Origin: Bacillus sp. AFS059628
Lineage (GTDB): Bacteria > Bacillota > Bacilli > Bacillales > Bacillaceae_G
Direction: 5' to 3'
Length of the DNA: 38,072 bases
Assembly: GCF_002571225.1 (NCBI RefSeq)
Contig: NZ_NVEC01000099.1
Location: forward strand, 1 to 38,072
Made by a program: the position numbers and the translations under genes. Below, piece after piece: positions 12,673-37,231 of this stretch (within the stretch, counting starts at the first letter, position 1; each line of letters opens with the position of its first letter). The notes under the pieces are model-generated. The model saw only the letters and a program-made list of their open reading frames with translations. It had not been told where the DNA came from and did no database searches.

Positions 12673-12818
12673 AATAAGGTAAAATATGTATATCTACATA
12701 CCGGACTTTTTTCTACACTCAATAGGATAACAACTTGTACTCAAAAACTCAACCGTATTCACCTGCACAATAGTCCATGTAAACGCTTTTTTCCATATTT
12801 TTTATAAAAAATTCATTT

Positions 12819-26477: not shown

Positions 26478-29156
26478 ATGATTAATCAAAAAAAGTATGT
26501 ACAATTTGTCATAATGTATATTTTTATATTTTCTCTTTGGATATTCTTTATTCCAGATCAATGGAATATAAAAGAAATTGGAATCCTTTTCTTATTTTGT
26601 TTTGCTGCAGTCTTTTCTTGTTATTGCTCATATAAAGCAATTAAGAAGATGAAGCGCGGCGATAAATTATTTTGGGTGTTATTATTATGCACTTGCCTAT
26701 GTGGATTGGCTATGGAGATAACTTTATTTCTTGATTCACTTTCTATATGCACTCAAGTCATATTCTCATATGAGGCACTACCTTTTTTCATCATCCAATA
26801 TATTTTACTCTTTTCTGGCTTTACTATAAAATTCATAAAACATTACTCTATTAGAGGCCTTGCTCAATTTTCATTCGATAGCATCTTTATCGTTATTATG
26901 AATATTTATTTTACCCTAACTTTTATTTTGGATCTTTCAAGCTTCAGTATGCTAACAAAGGGCACGTGGATTTTAATTGGATACTTTGTCGCACAATCAT
27001 TAGTAATTTACGCCGTTATTAGCCTGTATAGAAGAGAACAATATTCTTCTAGTAGAATTTCATTAATTATTGGTTTTACTATCATTCTCGTTTACGGATA
27101 TATACAGCTATTCCAGTTAAACAAAGGAATGCAAACTTCCGCTGAATTCTCTTATTTAATACATACTGCTTCAATTTTATTAATCTGTTTATCGTCCATA
27201 CTATACATTTTAGATAAACCAATGCAACATGAAACGAAAACAAAATATTATCGATTTGACTATGTGCGCTTTATATTACCTTATTTTAGTATAATCATTA
27301 CTTTTTCCTTTATTATCATTCAACCTTGGGATGATAAGTTCATGTTAATCGGTCTCGTATTATCACTTATTTTTTTATTCTTACGACAACTTTACATGTG
27401 GAAAGATAATAAAGTATTAATCGATACATATGAACAGCTGACTACACAACTAGAAGATGAAGTTGAAGAAGGTGCATTTGCATTATCAAAAAGTGAACAA
27501 CGCTATAAATCTTTATTTGAAGATCATCCCGATGCTGTTTTTTCTTTAAATATGAATGGTGTTTTTCAACATTCTAATAAGGCATGTGAAAGCTTGTTTA
27601 CCGCTTACTATTGTGAAGTAGCAAGCTATTCTCTTCTACACTTCATTGATTCAAAAGACCATGATCTACTAAAGAAAGCTTTACAAATAACAAAAGAAGG
27701 TAGGCCACAAACTTTAGAAGTTCGTACAAAAGAAAACGAAGGCTATTACTATTACCTTCACATTACACTCATCCCTACTTTCATCAACAAAGAAGTTGTT
27801 GGGATGTTCGGCATAGCACGTGATATTACAACTTTATATGAAAAGCAAAAACAAGTAGAACATTTAGCCTTTCATGATGCACTTACTGGATTACCAAATC
27901 GCCGAAAGTTTGAAAAAGATTTAAAAAATATTTTAAATACAGCTCAAACTAGCGCGAATGATGTTGCCGTCATGTTCCTTGATTTAGATAGATTCAAAAA
28001 AATTAACGATAGACTTGGTCACGATGTCGGAGATCTATTATTAATTGAAGTAGCAAAAAGATTACGTGGTTGCTTGCGTTCAAAAGATATCGTTGCTCGT
28101 CAAGGTGGAGATGAGTTTACAATTCTATTACCAGATATGTACTCAGAAAAAAGTGCGGCTTTTATAGCTGAACAGATTTTAACCGTTTTAAACAAACCAT
28201 TCTTCATTAAAGACGAAGAACTGTCTATTACACCGAGTATCGGAATTTCCATGTATCCTGATTACGGGAACGATGTTACTGAATTAATGAAAAATGCTGA
28301 TATGGCTATGTATCGCGCGAAAGCAAATGGAAAAAACAGATTTGTTTTCTTCTCAAAAGAAATAAGTATCGCCCAAAATGAAATCCAATTCTTAGAAGGT
28401 GAACTTGCAAAAGCATTACAACAAAATGAATTTTTCCTAGAATATCAGCCACAAGTAAGCACAAAAACAAAACAAATTATCGGTTTTGAAGCATTAATTC
28501 GTTGGAAGCATCCAAAACTCGGCATCGTATCGCCTGCTCAATTCATTCCTCTAGCGGAGGAAACTGGATTTATTATTGAGCTTGGAAATTGGATTTTACG
28601 TACCGCCTGCTTAGAGGCAAAAAGGTGGCATAATCAAGGTTTTTCTCACTTGAAAGTTGGTGTAAATTTATCTGTTGTTCAATTTAACCATACAAATTTA
28701 ATTCCAACCATTTCAAAAGTGTTAGAAGAAACAGAACTAAAACCAGAAGCACTAGATATTGAAATTACGGAAAGCATTGCAATTAATCAAAATCAATCTG
28801 TAGTTGCAAAACTAGAACAGCTTCAAAATCTCGGTATTCAAATTTCAATCGATGACTTTGGAACTGGTTATAGTTCTTTAGCTTATTTAACAAAATATCC
28901 AATTAATACATTAAAAATTGCTCGGGAATTTATTTGCGGCATTACAACTAGTCCTTTAGAAGAAGCGATTATCTCTTCCATTATTACACTATCAAAAGAA
29001 CTAAATTTAGAAGTTATCGCCGAGGGAGTAGAGACAGAAGAACAATGGAAGTTTTTATATGAACAAAACTGTGACAACATTCAAGGATTCTTTATTAGCA
29101 AGCCTGTTTCTAGTAAAGATGTTTGGAGGTTACTCCACAAAAAAACAACCGTCTAA
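26478..29156 (+). CDS. Membrane PAS-GGDEF-EAL cyclic di-GMP enzyme
   Basis: This 892-aa bifunctional candidate makes and/or degrades c-di-GMP. About eight to nine N-terminal membrane helices (residues 8-305) are followed by a short coiled segment and a PAS domain (about 340-455). Next comes a GGDEF domain with an intact RQGGDEF (543-547) and an upstream product-inhibition RxxD (R534-D537), and then an EAL domain from 635. The EAL motif is at 671-673, and VNLS, IEITES, DDFGTGYSS, LKI(A), AEGVE and QGFFISKP are all present. Only the Asp of LKID is Ala. Start: ATG at 26478 after CGGAG. A TTG six codons upstream is unlikely. A terminator shared with papR follows. Confidence 0.92.
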   Translation: MINQKKYVQFVIMYIFIFSLWIFFIPDQWNIKEIGILFLFCFAAVFSCYCSYKAIKKMKRGDKLFWVLLLCTCLCGLAMEITLFLDSLSICTQVIFSYEALPFFIIQYILLFSGFTIKFIKHYSIRGLAQFSFDSIFIVIMNIYFTLTFILDLSSFSMLTKGTWILIGYFVAQSLVIYAVISLYRREQYSSSRISLIIGFTIILVYGYIQLFQLNKGMQTSAEFSYLIHTASILLICLSSILYILDKPMQHETKTKYYRFDYVRFILPYFSIIITFSFIIIQPWDDKFMLIGLVLSLIFLFLRQLYMWKDNKVLIDTYEQLTTQLEDEVEEGAFALSKSEQRYKSLFEDHPDAVFSLNMNGVFQHSNKACESLFTAYYCEVASYSLLHFIDSKDHDLLKKALQITKEGRPQTLEVRTKENEGYYYYLHITLIPTFINKEVVGMFGIARDITTLYEKQKQVEHLAFHDALTGLPNRRKFEKDLKNILNTAQTSANDVAVMFLDLDRFKKINDRLGHDVGDLLLIEVAKRLRGCLRSKDIVARQGGDEFTILLPDMYSEKSAAFIAEQILTVLNKPFFIKDEELSITPSIGISMYPDYGNDVTELMKNADMAMYRAKANGKNRFVFFSKEISIAQNEIQFLEGELAKALQQNEFFLEYQPQVSTKTKQIIGFEALIRWKHPKLGIVSPAQFIPLAEETGFIIELGNWILRTACLEAKRWHNQGFSHLKVGVNLSVVQFNHTNLIPTISKVLEETELKPEALDIEITESIAINQNQSVVAKLEQLQNLGIQISIDDFGTGYSSLAYLTKYPINTLKIAREFICGITTSPLEEAIISSIITLSKELNLEVIAEGVETEEQWKFLYEQNCDNIQGFFISKPVSSKDVWRLLHKKTTV

Positions 29157-29175
29157 GTAAGACGGTTGTTTTTTT
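29145..29175. terminator. Bidirectional terminator between the GGDEF-EAL gene and papR
   Basis: ACAACCGTCT / AGACGGTTGT stem with a 5-nt loop, T runs on both strands. It overlaps the stop codons of both convergent genes. Confidence 0.92.
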
Positions 29176-29320
29176 AATATTCAAAAGGTAGGTCCGAAGC
29201 TAATTGTACCTCTTGATCATTATGAGAAATTACTTGGCTTTTCTCTAAAGCTGTATCTGTTAATGAAATACCCCATGCCATTGCTAACGTTAATAAACTA
29301 CCAATAAGTAATTTTTTCAT
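29174..29320 (-). CDS. papR: PapR, precursor of the PlcR-activating pheromone
   Basis: This 48-aa secreted propeptide is exported by its N-terminal signal (MKKLLIGSLLTLAMAWGISL), trimmed outside the cell, re-imported by the oligopeptide permease and bound by PlcR. The C-terminus reads ...VQLASDLPFEY, so the heptapeptide would be SDLPFEY and the pentapeptide LPFEY. It lies 89 nt downstream of plcR on the same strand with a perfect PlcR box between them, the classical plcR-papR arrangement. The ribosome-binding site is modest (GGTGATGG). The final residues differ from the four reference heptapeptides I remember (ADLPFEF, SDMPFEF, NEVPFEF, SDLPFEH). Confidence 0.95.
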   Translation of the reverse strand: MKKLLIGSLLTLAMAWGISLTDTALEKSQVISHNDQEVQLASDLPFEY

Positions 29321-29375: not shown

Positions 29376-29391
29376 TATGCAATTATGCATA
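29376..29391. promoter_or_regulatory. PlcR box upstream of papR
   Basis: TATGCAATTATGCATA matches the TATGNAN4TNCATA operator exactly on both strands. It lies between the plcR stop and the papR start, supporting separate PlcR-dependent expression of the pheromone gene. Confidence 0.92.
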
Positions 29392-29409: not shown

Positions 29410-30267
29410 TCATTGATTGATTTTATTTGCGATCGCCTCTTTATATGCATGCATTTCTAATATATCAAAAAAGAAACTTGCTTTTTTATATGTGTCTTCA
29501 ATCTCTGCCTCATCATACTCCAACTTTTCTAGACATTCACCTCTTTGATAGTACAGCTGTCCAATTAATGCCATACTATTAATTCGGCAAGATATTTCAA
29601 TCGCCTTATTCACTTGATATAAGGCTTGTTCATATTGATTATCTAAGTATAATGCTTTTGCATGATTATACCTTACCTTCACGTCGAATTCTTCATTATC
29701 ATGCAATGTCTCTAATTGTTTTAATATATCTTCAAATAACTCAATACTTTTCTTAAAATAATTATTTTCAGCATAAATATTTGCAATTGCATTCTCTATA
29801 TAAAGATTTTGGTATACGTCTATTCCAGCTAATTGTTGGTTTAATAATTTTTTTAATTCTAAAATACAATATTCATAATCAATTTTCTTCAATATGTAAG
29901 CTGCCACATGATATTGCCATTGAAGAAACTGCTGGAATTCAGGATGATATTCTTCCTTTTTCAGCTCATTCCATACTCTATTATAAATCTCTTTATATTT
30001 TTTTTGCTTACACAGCATAATGACTTGATCTTTAAACTGTTTTTTTCTCTCAATATCCGAATAAATGAGTACCTCATAAAAATGAATAATGGGAACTTGT
30101 AACTTTGCTGCAATACCTTGCAATATATCCATACTTGGGTATACCGCGCCCGATTCAATTCGACTCACTTCCGATTGATGACATATGTTCTCGGATAACT
30201 GCTTTTGTGTTAACCCTCTCATCACCCTAATTTTCTTAATTTCACTTCCTAGTTTTTCTGCGTGCAT
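29410..30267 (-). CDS. plcR: PlcR, pheromone-dependent virulence regulator
   Basis: RNPP-family activator of extracellular enzymes and toxins in the B. cereus group. It is active when bound by the PapR-derived peptide. The 285-aa protein has an N-terminal helix-turn-helix (about 7-62; RGLTQKQLSENICHQSEVSRIESG) and five degenerate TPR repeats (about 70-285) forming the peptide pocket. It is full length, ending MHAYKEAIANKINQ, without the nonsense mutation known from B. anthracis. It differs from reference PlcR at scattered TPR positions. The start ATG has GGTGAG 5 nt upstream. A PlcR box and a Spo0A box lie in the divergent promoter region. Confidence 0.97.
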   Translation of the reverse strand: MHAEKLGSEIKKIRVMRGLTQKQLSENICHQSEVSRIESGAVYPSMDILQGIAAKLQVPIIHFYEVLIYSDIERKKQFKDQVIMLCKQKKYKEIYNRVWNELKKEEYHPEFQQFLQWQYHVAAYILKKIDYEYCILELKKLLNQQLAGIDVYQNLYIENAIANIYAENNYFKKSIELFEDILKQLETLHDNEEFDVKVRYNHAKALYLDNQYEQALYQVNKAIEISCRINSMALIGQLYYQRGECLEKLEYDEAEIEDTYKKASFFFDILEMHAYKEAIANKINQ

Positions 30268-30333: not shown

Positions 30334-30364
30334 TTCGACAATTTTTGATATGAAATAATGCATA
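30334..30364. promoter_or_regulatory. PlcR box and Spo0A box in the plcR/nprB divergent region
   Basis: The PlcR box TATGAAATAATGCATA (30349-30364) matches the consensus exactly. An exact 0A box TTCGACA (reverse TGTCGAA) lies at 30334-30340, between the PlcR box and plcR. A one-mismatch 0A box (TTCGGCA) is at 30379-30385. Autoactivation by PlcR and repression by Spo0A~P are known features of this promoter. Confidence 0.85.
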
Positions 30365-30433: not shown

Positions 30434-30998
30434 ATGAATTAGAGAAAACTTGCCAGTGCATTCATTCCGTTCGGTCTCCTTTGCTCCTTATCAACAAAAG
30501 CTATTCATGCCCAAGAATTAGATAAAAGTGAAGTAAAAGTTGAAAATGCTCAGCCTGGTTTAACAATTGGGAAATTAACAAAACCTCAAAATGATACGAA
30601 AGAGAATATTGCAAAAAACATTTAAAGGGTGAGGTAAACGTGGCTAAAGCTCAACAAGAACAAGTCACTACTAAGAAAATGTAGATTTCCAACCTACAAA
30701 TAAAGAAACAAAAGAAAATCAAACCGAAGCTCGCCTTGCACAAACATATAAAAACTATAAAGTATATGGACAAGATCTTATTGTAAAAGTAGATAAAAAT
30801 GGAGTAATCACAACTATTAGTGGTAAAGTTGTCCAAAATTCAGATCAACAACCTAATCTTACTATAACAAATTTTTTGTCGAAAAATGAAGTAAAATCTA
30901 TATTACCCGATATAGTCCAAATTCCAAGCGATGCGGCTGAAACGGAACTCTCTAGTGAAACTGTTGTTTATAAGAAAAAAGAAGCTTACCACTCATAG
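30434..30998 (+). pseudogene. nprB: Degraded nprB (secreted neutral protease), N-terminal remnant
   Basis: Divergent from plcR, with AGGAG before an ATG. The reading after the start gives a clear signal peptide (RKLASAFIPFGLLCSLSTKA) and an FTP propeptide domain (TYKNYKVYGQDLIVKVDKNG), as in thermolysin-family (M4) proteases. It is broken in at least four ways. Codon 3 is TAG. One A is missing in the A run near 30610-30620, and another near 30675-30685. Homology stops at about codon 185, so the PepSY and the zinc-protease domains of an approximately 560-aa enzyme are absent. nprB is the usual neighbour of plcR, and its product has been reported to mature PapR. Confidence 0.88.
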
Positions 30999-31009
30999 GT
31001 AAACTTCTT
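30974..31009 (-). terminator. Terminator after the response regulator gene
   Basis: The minus strand has a 12-bp stem AAGAAGTTTACC / GGTAAGCTTCTT (one G-U pair), a 7-nt loop and TTTTTTC. The descending arm is made from the last codons of the nprB remnant. Confidence 0.75.
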
Positions 31010-31010
31010 T

Positions 31011-31613
31011 TCATATCCATCCCTTTTCTTCTGCAATTGTAATGGCCTCAATTCTATTTTTTGCATCAAGCTTCGTTAATACTTCAGAAATATAATTACG
31101 CACTGTACCAGGTGAAAGATACAGTGTCTTCGCAATTTCATTTGCCGTCTTTCCTTCTTTCGCGAGTAGCAATACTTCTTTTTCACGATCTGATAACGGA
31201 TTTTGCTCCTGCCATAAGCCGAACATTAAATCTTGAGAGACTTCTCGCTTTCCTTTCATTACGTTACGAATCGATGCAGCTAAATCTTCACTTGGGCTAT
31301 CCTTTAATAAATATCCTTGTACGCCAGCTTTCATTGCTCGTTCAAAATAACCAGGACGCGCAAATGTTGTTAAAATCATTACTTTACATGCTGATTTTTC
31401 TTTCTTTAATGTTTCCGCAACATCTAATCCGCTTTGAATTGGCATTTCAATATCCATAATGCTTACATCGGGTTGTAACGATTCAATTAGTTTTAGTGCC
31501 TCTTCCCCGTTCGCAGCTTGCCCAATTACTTCGATATCATCTTCTAGATCAAGCAAGGCTCCTAATGCACCACGAAGCATCCGCTGATCTTCTGCAATAA
31601 TAATTCGAATCAT
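31011..31613 (-). CDS. NarL/LuxR-type response regulator (YvfU/DesR-like)
   Basis: This 200-aa regulator has a receiver domain with acidic D9, phospho-acceptor D54 (SIMDIEMP) and Thr/Lys switch residues (LTTFARPGYF; LLKDSPSEDL), then a C-terminal LuxR-type helix-turn-helix (about 140-195; LSDREKEVLLLAKEGKTANEIAKTLYLSPGTVRNYI). The sequence is close to DesR and YvfU. The ABC-transporter genes upstream make YvfU the better match. Its start overlaps the kinase stop by 4 nt. It likely activates its own operon, judging from inverted repeats upstream of the first gene. Confidence 0.93.
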   Translation of the reverse strand: MIRIIIAEDQRMLRGALGALLDLEDDIEVIGQAANGEEALKLIESLQPDVSIMDIEMPIQSGLDVAETLKKEKSACKVMILTTFARPGYFERAMKAGVQGYLLKDSPSEDLAASIRNVMKGKREVSQDLMFGLWQEQNPLSDREKEVLLLAKEGKTANEIAKTLYLSPGTVRNYISEVLTKLDAKNRIEAITIAEEKGWI

Positions 31614-35698: not shown

Positions 35699-35714
35699 TA
35701 TGCAAATATGCATA
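35699..35714. promoter_or_regulatory. PlcR box upstream of the M28 aminopeptidase gene
   Basis: TATGCAAATATGCATA matches TATGNAN4TNCATA exactly on both strands. It is 30 nt upstream of the -35 of the aminopeptidase promoter, an arrangement expected for a PlcR-activated gene. Confidence 0.88.
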
Positions 35715-35833: not shown

Positions 35834-37231
35834 ATGAAAAAATCTTTGAAACAAAAAATAGTAAGTTCTTTACTTGCTGTATCACTCGCTGTTAGCTTAG
35901 CTCCAATCGGACAAGTCAAAGCTGATTCCACGTCAGAAATCACACAAACTTCACCTATCACAAAAAAAGTTGATGCAAGCCGCGCCATCGAACACATCCG
36001 TTTCTTATCCGAAACAATTGGTCCTCGCCCTGGTGGAACAAAATCAGAAGAATGGGCTTCTCGCTACGTTGGTATGCAGCTTAAATCAATGGGCTATGAG
36101 GTAGAATATCAACCATTTCAAGTGCCCGATCAATATGTTGGATTTATGGAATCACCATTATCAACAAAACGTAATTGGCAAGCCGGTGCTGCTCCTAACG
36201 CACTAATTTCTACAGAAGCTGTTACAGCCCCTCTTATCTTTGTTCAAGGTGGAACAAAATTAGAGGATATCCCAAATGAAGTAAACGGGAAAATTGTTCT
36301 ATTTGAAAGAGGAACAACAGTTGCAGACTATAATAAACAAGTTGAAAATGCTGTTAGTAAAGGAGCAAAAGGAGTTCTTTTATACAGTTTAATTGGCGGA
36401 CGTGGAAATTATGGACAAACCTTCAATCCCCGCCTAACGAAAAAGCAATCTATCCCTGTCTTTGGTCTTGCTTATGCGCAAGGAAATGCATTTAAAGAGG
36501 AAATCGCTAAAAAAGGGACAACAATTCTTTCCCTAAAAGCAAGACATGAATCTAATTTAACATCATTAAACGTCATCGCTAAAAAGAAACCTAAAAATAG
36601 TACAGGTAATGAAAAAGCTTTCGTTGTAAGTTCGCACTATGATAGCGTAGTCGGCGCACCTGGAGCAAATGACAATGCTTCTGGTACAGGGTTAGTATTA
36701 GAGTTAGCTCGTGCTTTTCAAAATGTAGAAACTGATAAAGAAATTCGTTTTATTGCTTTTGGTTCAGAAGAGACTGGCTTACTTGGTTCCGATCATTACG
36801 TGAATAGTCTATCCCAAAAAGAACGCGATCGAATTTTAGGTGTCTTTAATGCAGACATGGTTGCAACAAATTACGATAAAGCAAAGAATTTATATGCTAT
36901 GACGCCTAACGGTTCTCCAAACCTTGTAACAGACGCAGCCTTACAAGCAGGTAAACAATTAAATAATGAACTGGTTCTGCAAGGGAAATTTGGCTCTAGT
37001 GATCACGTACCGTTTGCTGAAGTTGGTATTCCGGCCGCCCTATTCATATGGATGGGTGTCGATAGTTGGAATCCATTAATCTATCATATTGAGAAGGTAT
37101 ATCACACCCCTCAAGATAACGTATTAGAAAACATTTCGCTAGAACGTATGAAAATGGCATTAGAGGTCATTGGTACTGGTGTCTATAACAGCCTTCATTC
37201 CACCGTAAAAACAGGACAAAAAGCCGCTTAA
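35834..37231 (+). CDS. Secreted M28 family aminopeptidase
   Basis: This 465-aa extracellular zinc peptidase is related to B. subtilis YwaD. It has a signal peptide (about 1-30; KKSLKQ, hydrophobic core, cleavage near VKA-DS), a PA domain (about 125-235) inserted in the M28 fold, and a complete dinuclear zinc site: H268 and D280 (SSHYD..GANDNASG), catalytic E312 with E313 (GSEETG), D341 (NADMVA) and H424 (VYHTPQDN). The ATG at 35834 follows AGGAGAGG. A perfect PlcR box and a sigma-A promoter lie upstream, so it probably belongs to the PlcR secretome. Release of N-terminal residues from peptides is the expected activity. Confidence 0.93.
   Translation: MKKSLKQKIVSSLLAVSLAVSLAPIGQVKADSTSEITQTSPITKKVDASRAIEHIRFLSETIGPRPGGTKSEEWASRYVGMQLKSMGYEVEYQPFQVPDQYVGFMESPLSTKRNWQAGAAPNALISTEAVTAPLIFVQGGTKLEDIPNEVNGKIVLFERGTTVADYNKQVENAVSKGAKGVLLYSLIGGRGNYGQTFNPRLTKKQSIPVFGLAYAQGNAFKEEIAKKGTTILSLKARHESNLTSLNVIAKKKPKNSTGNEKAFVVSSHYDSVVGAPGANDNASGTGLVLELARAFQNVETDKEIRFIAFGSEETGLLGSDHYVNSLSQKERDRILGVFNADMVATNYDKAKNLYAMTPNGSPNLVTDAALQAGKQLNNELVLQGKFGSSDHVPFAEVGIPAALFIWMGVDSWNPLIYHIEKVYHTPQDNVLENISLERMKMALEVIGTGVYNSLHSTVKTGQKAA

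What the first reader, a model, noticed from the sequence alone, without database searches (positions are those of the whole stretch)
30434..30998. nprB is dead next to an intact plcR-papR pair
Seen: TAG at codon 3, two single-A losses, and loss of everything after the FTP propeptide domain. Known: nprB normally sits divergent from plcR, and its protease has been reported to process PapR in B. cereus. Inference: pheromone maturation here must use another secreted protease, or the circuit runs with altered peptide length or timing. It resembles a stage in loss of the system, but with PlcR itself still intact.
Basis: partly seen in the sequence, partly recalled or inferred. Interest (0 to 1): 0.75.

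Follow-up and report, generated by a model that had tools for sequence, protein, structure and literature searches.

The report
Broken protease gene beside intact regulator
In a relative of Bacillus cereus, the protease gene next to a quorum-sensing switch is a dead stump while the switch itself looks complete, an arrangement already described in other strains of this group.

Summary
At 30434-30998 lies the 5' stump of nprB: a stop at codon 3, reading that then moves through three frames, and no DNA for about two thirds of the enzyme, including both catalytic domains. The stump ends inside the stem-loop behind the convergent gene yvfU. Against an intact homologue found here in Priestia taiwanensis (584 aa, with a PlcR box at almost the same distance from its start) the three pieces cover residues 4-184. 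PlcR (285 aa, 91% identical to the solved protein, four named PapR-contact residues kept), PapR (48 aa, ending SDLPFEY) and their PlcR boxes are complete. The situation is not new: papers report nprB missing or as remnants beside plcR-papR in several B. cereus strains, including some with functional plcR-papR, and point to other proteases as PapR processors. So the inference of another secreted protease is reasonable and already in print; reading it as a stage in loss of the whole system is not supported. No genome is held for the window and no B. cereus-group relative was found in the collections searched, so the substitute protease, or a second nprB, could not be looked for.

The parts
30434..30998 (+). 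nprB remnant: N-terminal (signal and propeptide) part only, stop at codon 3, three frames, catalytic part absent
30675..30995 (+). longest open run of the remnant, holds the FTP propeptide domain; its only listed ORF of 40 aa or more starts late, at 30876
30349..30364 (.). perfect PlcR box between plcR and the nprB remnant, 69 nt before the remnant's start and 81 nt before plcR's
30334..30341 (-). Spo0A-box-like octamer beside the PlcR box (octamer recalled; 3 such octamers in the window against 2.0 expected, so weak)
29410..30267 (-). plcR, 285 aa, intact
29376..29391 (.). perfect PlcR box before papR
29174..29320 (-). papR, 48 aa, intact, C-terminal heptapeptide SDLPFEY
30977..31011 (.). [quoted passage not shown]
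   Evidence: not listed by the terminator scan
31011..31613 (-). yvfU-like response regulator, the convergent neighbour
35699..35714 (.). perfect PlcR box 119 nt upstream of the ATG at 35834 of an M28 aminopeptidase gene
35834..37231 (+). M28 aminopeptidase with PA domain, signal-peptide-like start by eye; candidate PlcR-controlled peptidase

Best explanation
The window is from a B. cereus-group chromosome (inferred from PlcR, PapR and gene order) of a lineage in which nprB has been lost by deletion of its 3' two thirds up to the yvfU terminator, with point decay of the remaining 5' stump (order of events not known). The PlcR box is kept because plcR itself needs it for autoactivation. plcR and papR most likely still signal: PapR is exported, cut by one or more other secreted proteases, taken back up by Opp and bound by PlcR. 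Shown here: the broken gene, the intact pair, the boxes. Inferred: that the circuit works, and that other proteases cut PapR.
For: Structure of the remnant and loss of both M4 domains relative to an intact homologue; stem-loop at its end. PlcR has 259 of 284 aligned residues identical to PDB 2qfc, with K87, K89, Q237 and Y275 kept. PapR matches its Pfam family over 48 of 48 positions. In print: nprB lacking in some strains, seemingly in step with taxonomy (PMC2588459); remnants in G9241 and other cross-over strains, and B. [quoted passage not shown] another thermolysin-type protease raising haemolysis, read as PapR processing (PMC10017872); supernatant of a plcR mutant pointing to other proteases, as the authors' unpublished result (PMC4147580); PapR27 active in a papR mutant, taken as a sign of other peptidases (PMC4701985).
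Against: No genome of this strain is held, so neither the substitute protease nor a second nprB could be looked for. No B. cereus-group relative was found in the collections searched, so the lineage and the age of the loss are not established here. That PlcR is active in this strain is not shown. The haemolysis effect in PMC10017872 is titled slight in its own figure legend and was significant only at 37 C in mid-exponential phase. Reviews state that NprB is required for, or does, PapR processing (PMC7911051; PMC8140105), without the exception.
Confidence: 0.86

Rival explanations
1. The loss of nprB is a first step in decay of the PlcR-PapR system, with PlcR output already reduced for want of PapR processing.
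For: B. anthracis is reported with both a truncated plcR (PMC10017872 abstract) and a truncated nprB. P. taiwanensis shows that a member of the block can be lost: its one PlcR match at E 1e-20 or better covers query residues 5-81 and holds 2 TGA stops.
Against: plcR, papR and their boxes are complete here; strains without nprB but with functional plcR-papR are described. In P. taiwanensis the order is reversed, nprB kept and PlcR cut.
Confidence: 0.06
2. A second, intact nprB elsewhere in the genome supplies the enzyme, so nothing has changed functionally.
For: M4 proteases can occur in several copies: 3 in the P. taiwanensis genome.
Against: No other stop-to-stop run of 60 aa or more with HExxH in the 38 kb. 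The strains in print that lack nprB at this place are described as lacking it, not as carrying it elsewhere. Not testable here.
Confidence: 0.05
3. The stump is kept as a PlcR-driven non-coding transcript that runs into the yvfU terminator and tunes yvfU.
For: PlcR box, a ribosome-binding-type sequence (by eye) and a strong terminal stem-loop survive; promoter-like sites precede the start.
Against: The box serves plcR and the stem-loop serves yvfU, so both would be kept anyway. Promoter-like sites in the scanned region are no more frequent than in shuffles (26 against 29.4). No Rfam family reaches its gathering score (one hit at E 0.21, 25.7 against 100 bits).
Confidence: 0.04
4. The breaks are sequencing or assembly errors.
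For: The frame steps lie near runs of A, where some methods err.
Against: About 400 codons are missing, with a clean run into the yvfU stem-loop; single-base errors cannot make that. Similar remnants are in print.
Confidence: 0.02

Closest known systems
nprB remnants beside plcR-papR in B. cereus G9241, other cross-over strains and B. anthracis (PMC10017872)
   Same: Same place, same neighbours, only remnants of nprB left; plcR-papR described as functional in G9241 and some other cross-over strains.
   Different: The PapR heptapeptide differs (SDLPFEH in G9241, SDLPFEY here); PlcR is truncated in B. anthracis, complete here. Whether the breaks are identical could not be compared.
B. cereus ATCC 10987, NVH 0075-95 and the emetic strain printed as AH87 (probably AH187, recalled) (PMC10017872)
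   Same: plcR-papR described as functional, nprB absent or truncated.
   Different: Sequence not available here, so extent of remnant not compared.
nprB-plcR-papR locus of B. cereus ATCC 14579 (PMC2588459, PMC2464732)
   Same: Gene order papR, plcR, nprB, yvfU, yvfT, ABC transporter; [quoted passage not shown]
   Different: nprB present and PlcR-controlled there; PapR ends KDLPFEY (PMC10017872).
M4 protease of Priestia taiwanensis, L001:6104-7858
   Same: Propeptide homologous to the remnant; perfect PlcR box 68 nt before its start (69 nt here); a PlcR-like gene next to it.
   Different: Intact; same strand as the PlcR-like gene, which holds only the 75-aa DNA-binding part.

Membership tests
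NprB (M4, thermolysin-type neutral protease) | FTP propeptide domain | tested here: met
   PF07504 E 5.4e-9; homologue match
NprB (M4, thermolysin-type neutral protease) | M4 catalytic domains with HExxH | tested here: not met
   absent from the remnant and from stop-to-stop runs of 60 aa or more in the window; present in the L001 homologue. So it is a pseudogene, not a working member.
NprB (M4, thermolysin-type neutral protease) | PlcR box and position between plcR and yvfU | tested here: met
PlcR (RNPP family regulator) | HTH plus RNPP C-terminal domain, full length | tested here: met
   PF01381 and PF18768; 259 of 284 identical to 2qfc
PlcR (RNPP family regulator) | PapR-contact residues Lys87, Lys89, Gln237, Tyr275 | tested here: met
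   residues named in PMC6568020; checked
PapR signalling peptide | 48-aa precursor with C-terminal heptapeptide of a known type | tested here: met
   PF05968 1-48 of 48; ends SDLPFEY; the LPFEY motif is in print, the exact heptapeptide was not seen in print
PapR matured without NprB | mature peptide found in the supernatant of this strain | not testable with these tools
   needs mass spectrometry

The most novel reading that the evidence does not exclude
nprB and plcR formed a PlcR-boxed block before the B. cereus group and P. taiwanensis parted, and it has decayed from opposite ends: here the protease is gone and the regulator kept; in P. taiwanensis the protease with its PlcR box is kept while PlcR is cut to a 75-aa DNA-binding domain and no PapR is detected. 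Then NprB was never essential to the circuit, and a PlcR without its peptide-sensing half may still act on PlcR boxes there.
Probability: 0.3. Interest if true: 0.45.

Novelty: already known. Interest (0 to 1): 0.17.

Why it matters
It is one more case suggesting that the protease credited with PapR processing in B. cereus 569 is dispensable in part of the group, which keeps open the question of which enzymes mature the peptide. The new points are small: the remnant ends in the yvfU stem-loop, an intact outgroup nprB with a matching PlcR box exists, and a PlcR-boxed aminopeptidase lies close by.

Tried and rejected
Looked for close relatives of the locus: one PlcR match, from P. taiwanensis, in genome contigs, none in viral contigs, no DNA match in plasmids by megablast or in phages by blastn, and only PlcR relatives under 60% identity in 16 of 72,556 plasmid records. 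The nprB fragment had no match in plasmids. Against solved structures the fragment reached thermolysin (5a3y) only at E 0.005, behind a cytochrome chain at E 9e-5 with no stretch passing on its own, which I take as chance. PapR (PF05968) was found in 0 of 1 and 0 of 397 genomes; the 14 controls also gave none, so this does not prove absence. PlcR relatives at E 1e-20 or better were in 110 of 397 genomes; in most genomes listed only part of the first-look candidates was scored (6 of 18 in P. taiwanensis), so a further PlcR there is not strictly excluded. In the 25 loci fetched from that search, 0 of 25 carry a match (E 1e-5) to the P. taiwanensis M4 protease, but those loci reach only 1.5 kb to each side, so wider linkage is not excluded. 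NCBIfam named neither of the two remnant pieces tried. Rfam gave nothing over threshold. The paper that first tied NprB to PapR (Pomerantsev 2009) and the PapR-specificity paper (Bouillaut 2008) are not held; I know them only through citing papers. PMC7956386 says nprB is in all B. thuringiensis genomes it surveyed, but it notes that NprB is sometimes called NprA or Npr599, so the ubiquitous gene may be another one and I did not count it against the finding. Two papers hold both 'PlcR box' and 'aminopeptidase'; in both the aminopeptidase passage is about Cry toxin receptors. The other papers of the wider aminopeptidase searches were mostly not opened for this. No paper held both 'Priestia taiwanensis' and 'PlcR'. 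Searches were used as listings only.

Full report
What is there. The window carries, by inference from PlcR, PapR and gene order, a stretch of a Bacillus cereus-group chromosome with the order GGDEF-EAL protein, papR, plcR, nprB remnant, yvfU, yvfT, two ABC transporter genes, an M24 peptidase gene and an M28 aminopeptidase gene. Around papR-plcR-nprB-yvfTU this is the order described for B. cereus ATCC 14579 (PMC2588459, passages and section 5 read).

The remnant. An ATG at 30434, behind a ribosome-binding-type sequence (by eye), is followed by AAT and TAG. After the stop, open runs of 60, 29 and 107 codons follow each other in three frames, the last closing at 30998. Each change of frame is of the size a one-base loss would give; which base was lost cannot be told from this sequence alone. 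Searched apart, the third run hits the FTP propeptide family. An intact M4 protease of 584 aa was found in Priestia taiwanensis (L001:6104-7858), with FTP at residues 83-128 and the two catalytic domains at 243-401 and 419-567. The three runs match it in order, at residues about 4-58, 57-78 and 78-184 (positions converted). In the same search they match neither of the other two M4 loci fetched from that genome at E up to 1. So about 31% of the gene is represented and about 400 codons, with both catalytic domains, are missing.

Where it ends. The stump runs into an inverted repeat at 30977-31011 (14-nt arms, 7-nt loop). Folded as RNA on the yvfU strand, the stretch 30965-31025 gives -18.7 kcal/mol against a shuffle mean of -8.9; 1 of 200 shuffles folds as well. 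The consensus terminator scan of the region did not list this site. [quoted passage not shown] The deletion thus seems to have spared yvfU and its terminator.

The pair beside it. PlcR is 285 aa with HTH and RNPP C-terminal domains. It matches solved PlcR (2qfc) with 259 of 284 aligned residues identical and keeps Lys87, Lys89, Gln237 and Tyr275, which PMC6568020 names as partners of the PapR glutamate (passages). PapR matches its family over 48 of 48 positions and ends SDLPFEY. PMC10017872 gives SDLPFEH for G9241 and KDLPFEY for ATCC 14579 (passages), so this heptapeptide differs from each by one residue. Perfect PlcR boxes lie before papR and between plcR and the stump. Four perfect matches to the 16-base consensus occur in the window against 0.09 expected; one of them, at 12685, fails the stricter consensus and is probably chance.

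What is known. PMC2588459 (passages and section 5) reports that nprB is lacking in some strains and that this seems correlated with taxonomic position. PMC10017872 (passages and section 16) reports remnants in G9241 and other cross-over strains, a truncated gene in B. anthracis, and B. cereus strains with functional plcR-papR but absent or truncated nprB. It proposes a PlcR-controlled thermolysin-type protease as a PapR processor; the effect on haemolysis was slight and significant only at 37 C in mid-exponential phase. PMC4147580 (passages; unpublished result of its authors) and PMC4701985 (passages) also argue for further proteases. Reviews that credit NprB alone are PMC7911051 and PMC8140105 (passages). 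The main finding is therefore already known in kind; this window adds one more instance.

How it most likely works. The PlcR box is kept for plcR autoactivation. PapR is probably cut by other secreted proteases. That step is inferred for this strain: no genome is held. A nearby candidate for a trimming role, not for the internal cut, is the M28 aminopeptidase at 35834-37231, with a perfect PlcR box 119 nt upstream of its ATG. It is not in the table of 45 PlcR-controlled genes of ATCC 14579 (PMC2464732, passages and section 10 read); the paper's longer list of 69 boxes was not seen. By the strict consensus 3 boxes occur in the window against 0.17 expected; two of these are the known pair, so the third on its own is only suggestive.

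The mirror case. In P. taiwanensis the M4 gene has a perfect PlcR box 68 nt before its start (69 nt in the window). The next gene on the same strand is a 75-aa HTH protein 61% identical to PlcR over query residues 6-74. The one PlcR match of that genome at E 1e-20 or better covers query residues 5-81 and holds 2 TGA stops; 6 of 18 first-look candidates were scored. PapR was not found by Pfam, in a search without a positive control. There the protease survives and the regulator is cut. This suggests that the two can be lost independently and argues against reading nprB loss as the start of loss of the system. It rests on one genome. Counts of PlcR-box-like sites in that genome are above their reversed-pattern control (23 against 16 and 24 against 13 per strand), too little to claim a regulon.

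Limits. No B. cereus-group relative was found in the collections searched, so lineage, age of the loss and sharing of the breaks with published remnants could not be tested. Whether PlcR is active in this strain is unknown.

Noticed in passing
35699-35714 and 35834-37231: Perfect PlcR box 119 nt upstream of an M28 aminopeptidase with PA domain, about 6.5 kb from papR; absent from the PlcR regulon table of PMC2464732. Could be an unlisted PlcR target.
   Followed up: partly
L001:6104-8213: P. taiwanensis has an intact nprB-like gene with a PlcR box, followed on the same strand by a PlcR-like protein of only 75 aa (DNA-binding part) with a terminator-like sequence after it (by eye).
   Followed up: partly
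L032:1598-2593 and L033:1837-2988: In P. taiwanensis, PlcR-box sites lie upstream of genes for secreted toxin-like proteins (by eye; no family search made).
   Followed up: no
about 28914-28922: The EAL domain of the GGDEF-EAL protein next to papR reads Lys-Ile-Ala where Lys-Ile-Asp is usual (motif recalled); it may affect phosphodiesterase activity.
   Followed up: no
12685-12700: A fourth PlcR-box-like palindrome between two minus-strand genes (aldolase-like and Spo0F-like, by eye), 77 nt... upstream of the former; it fails the stricter consensus.
   Followed up: no
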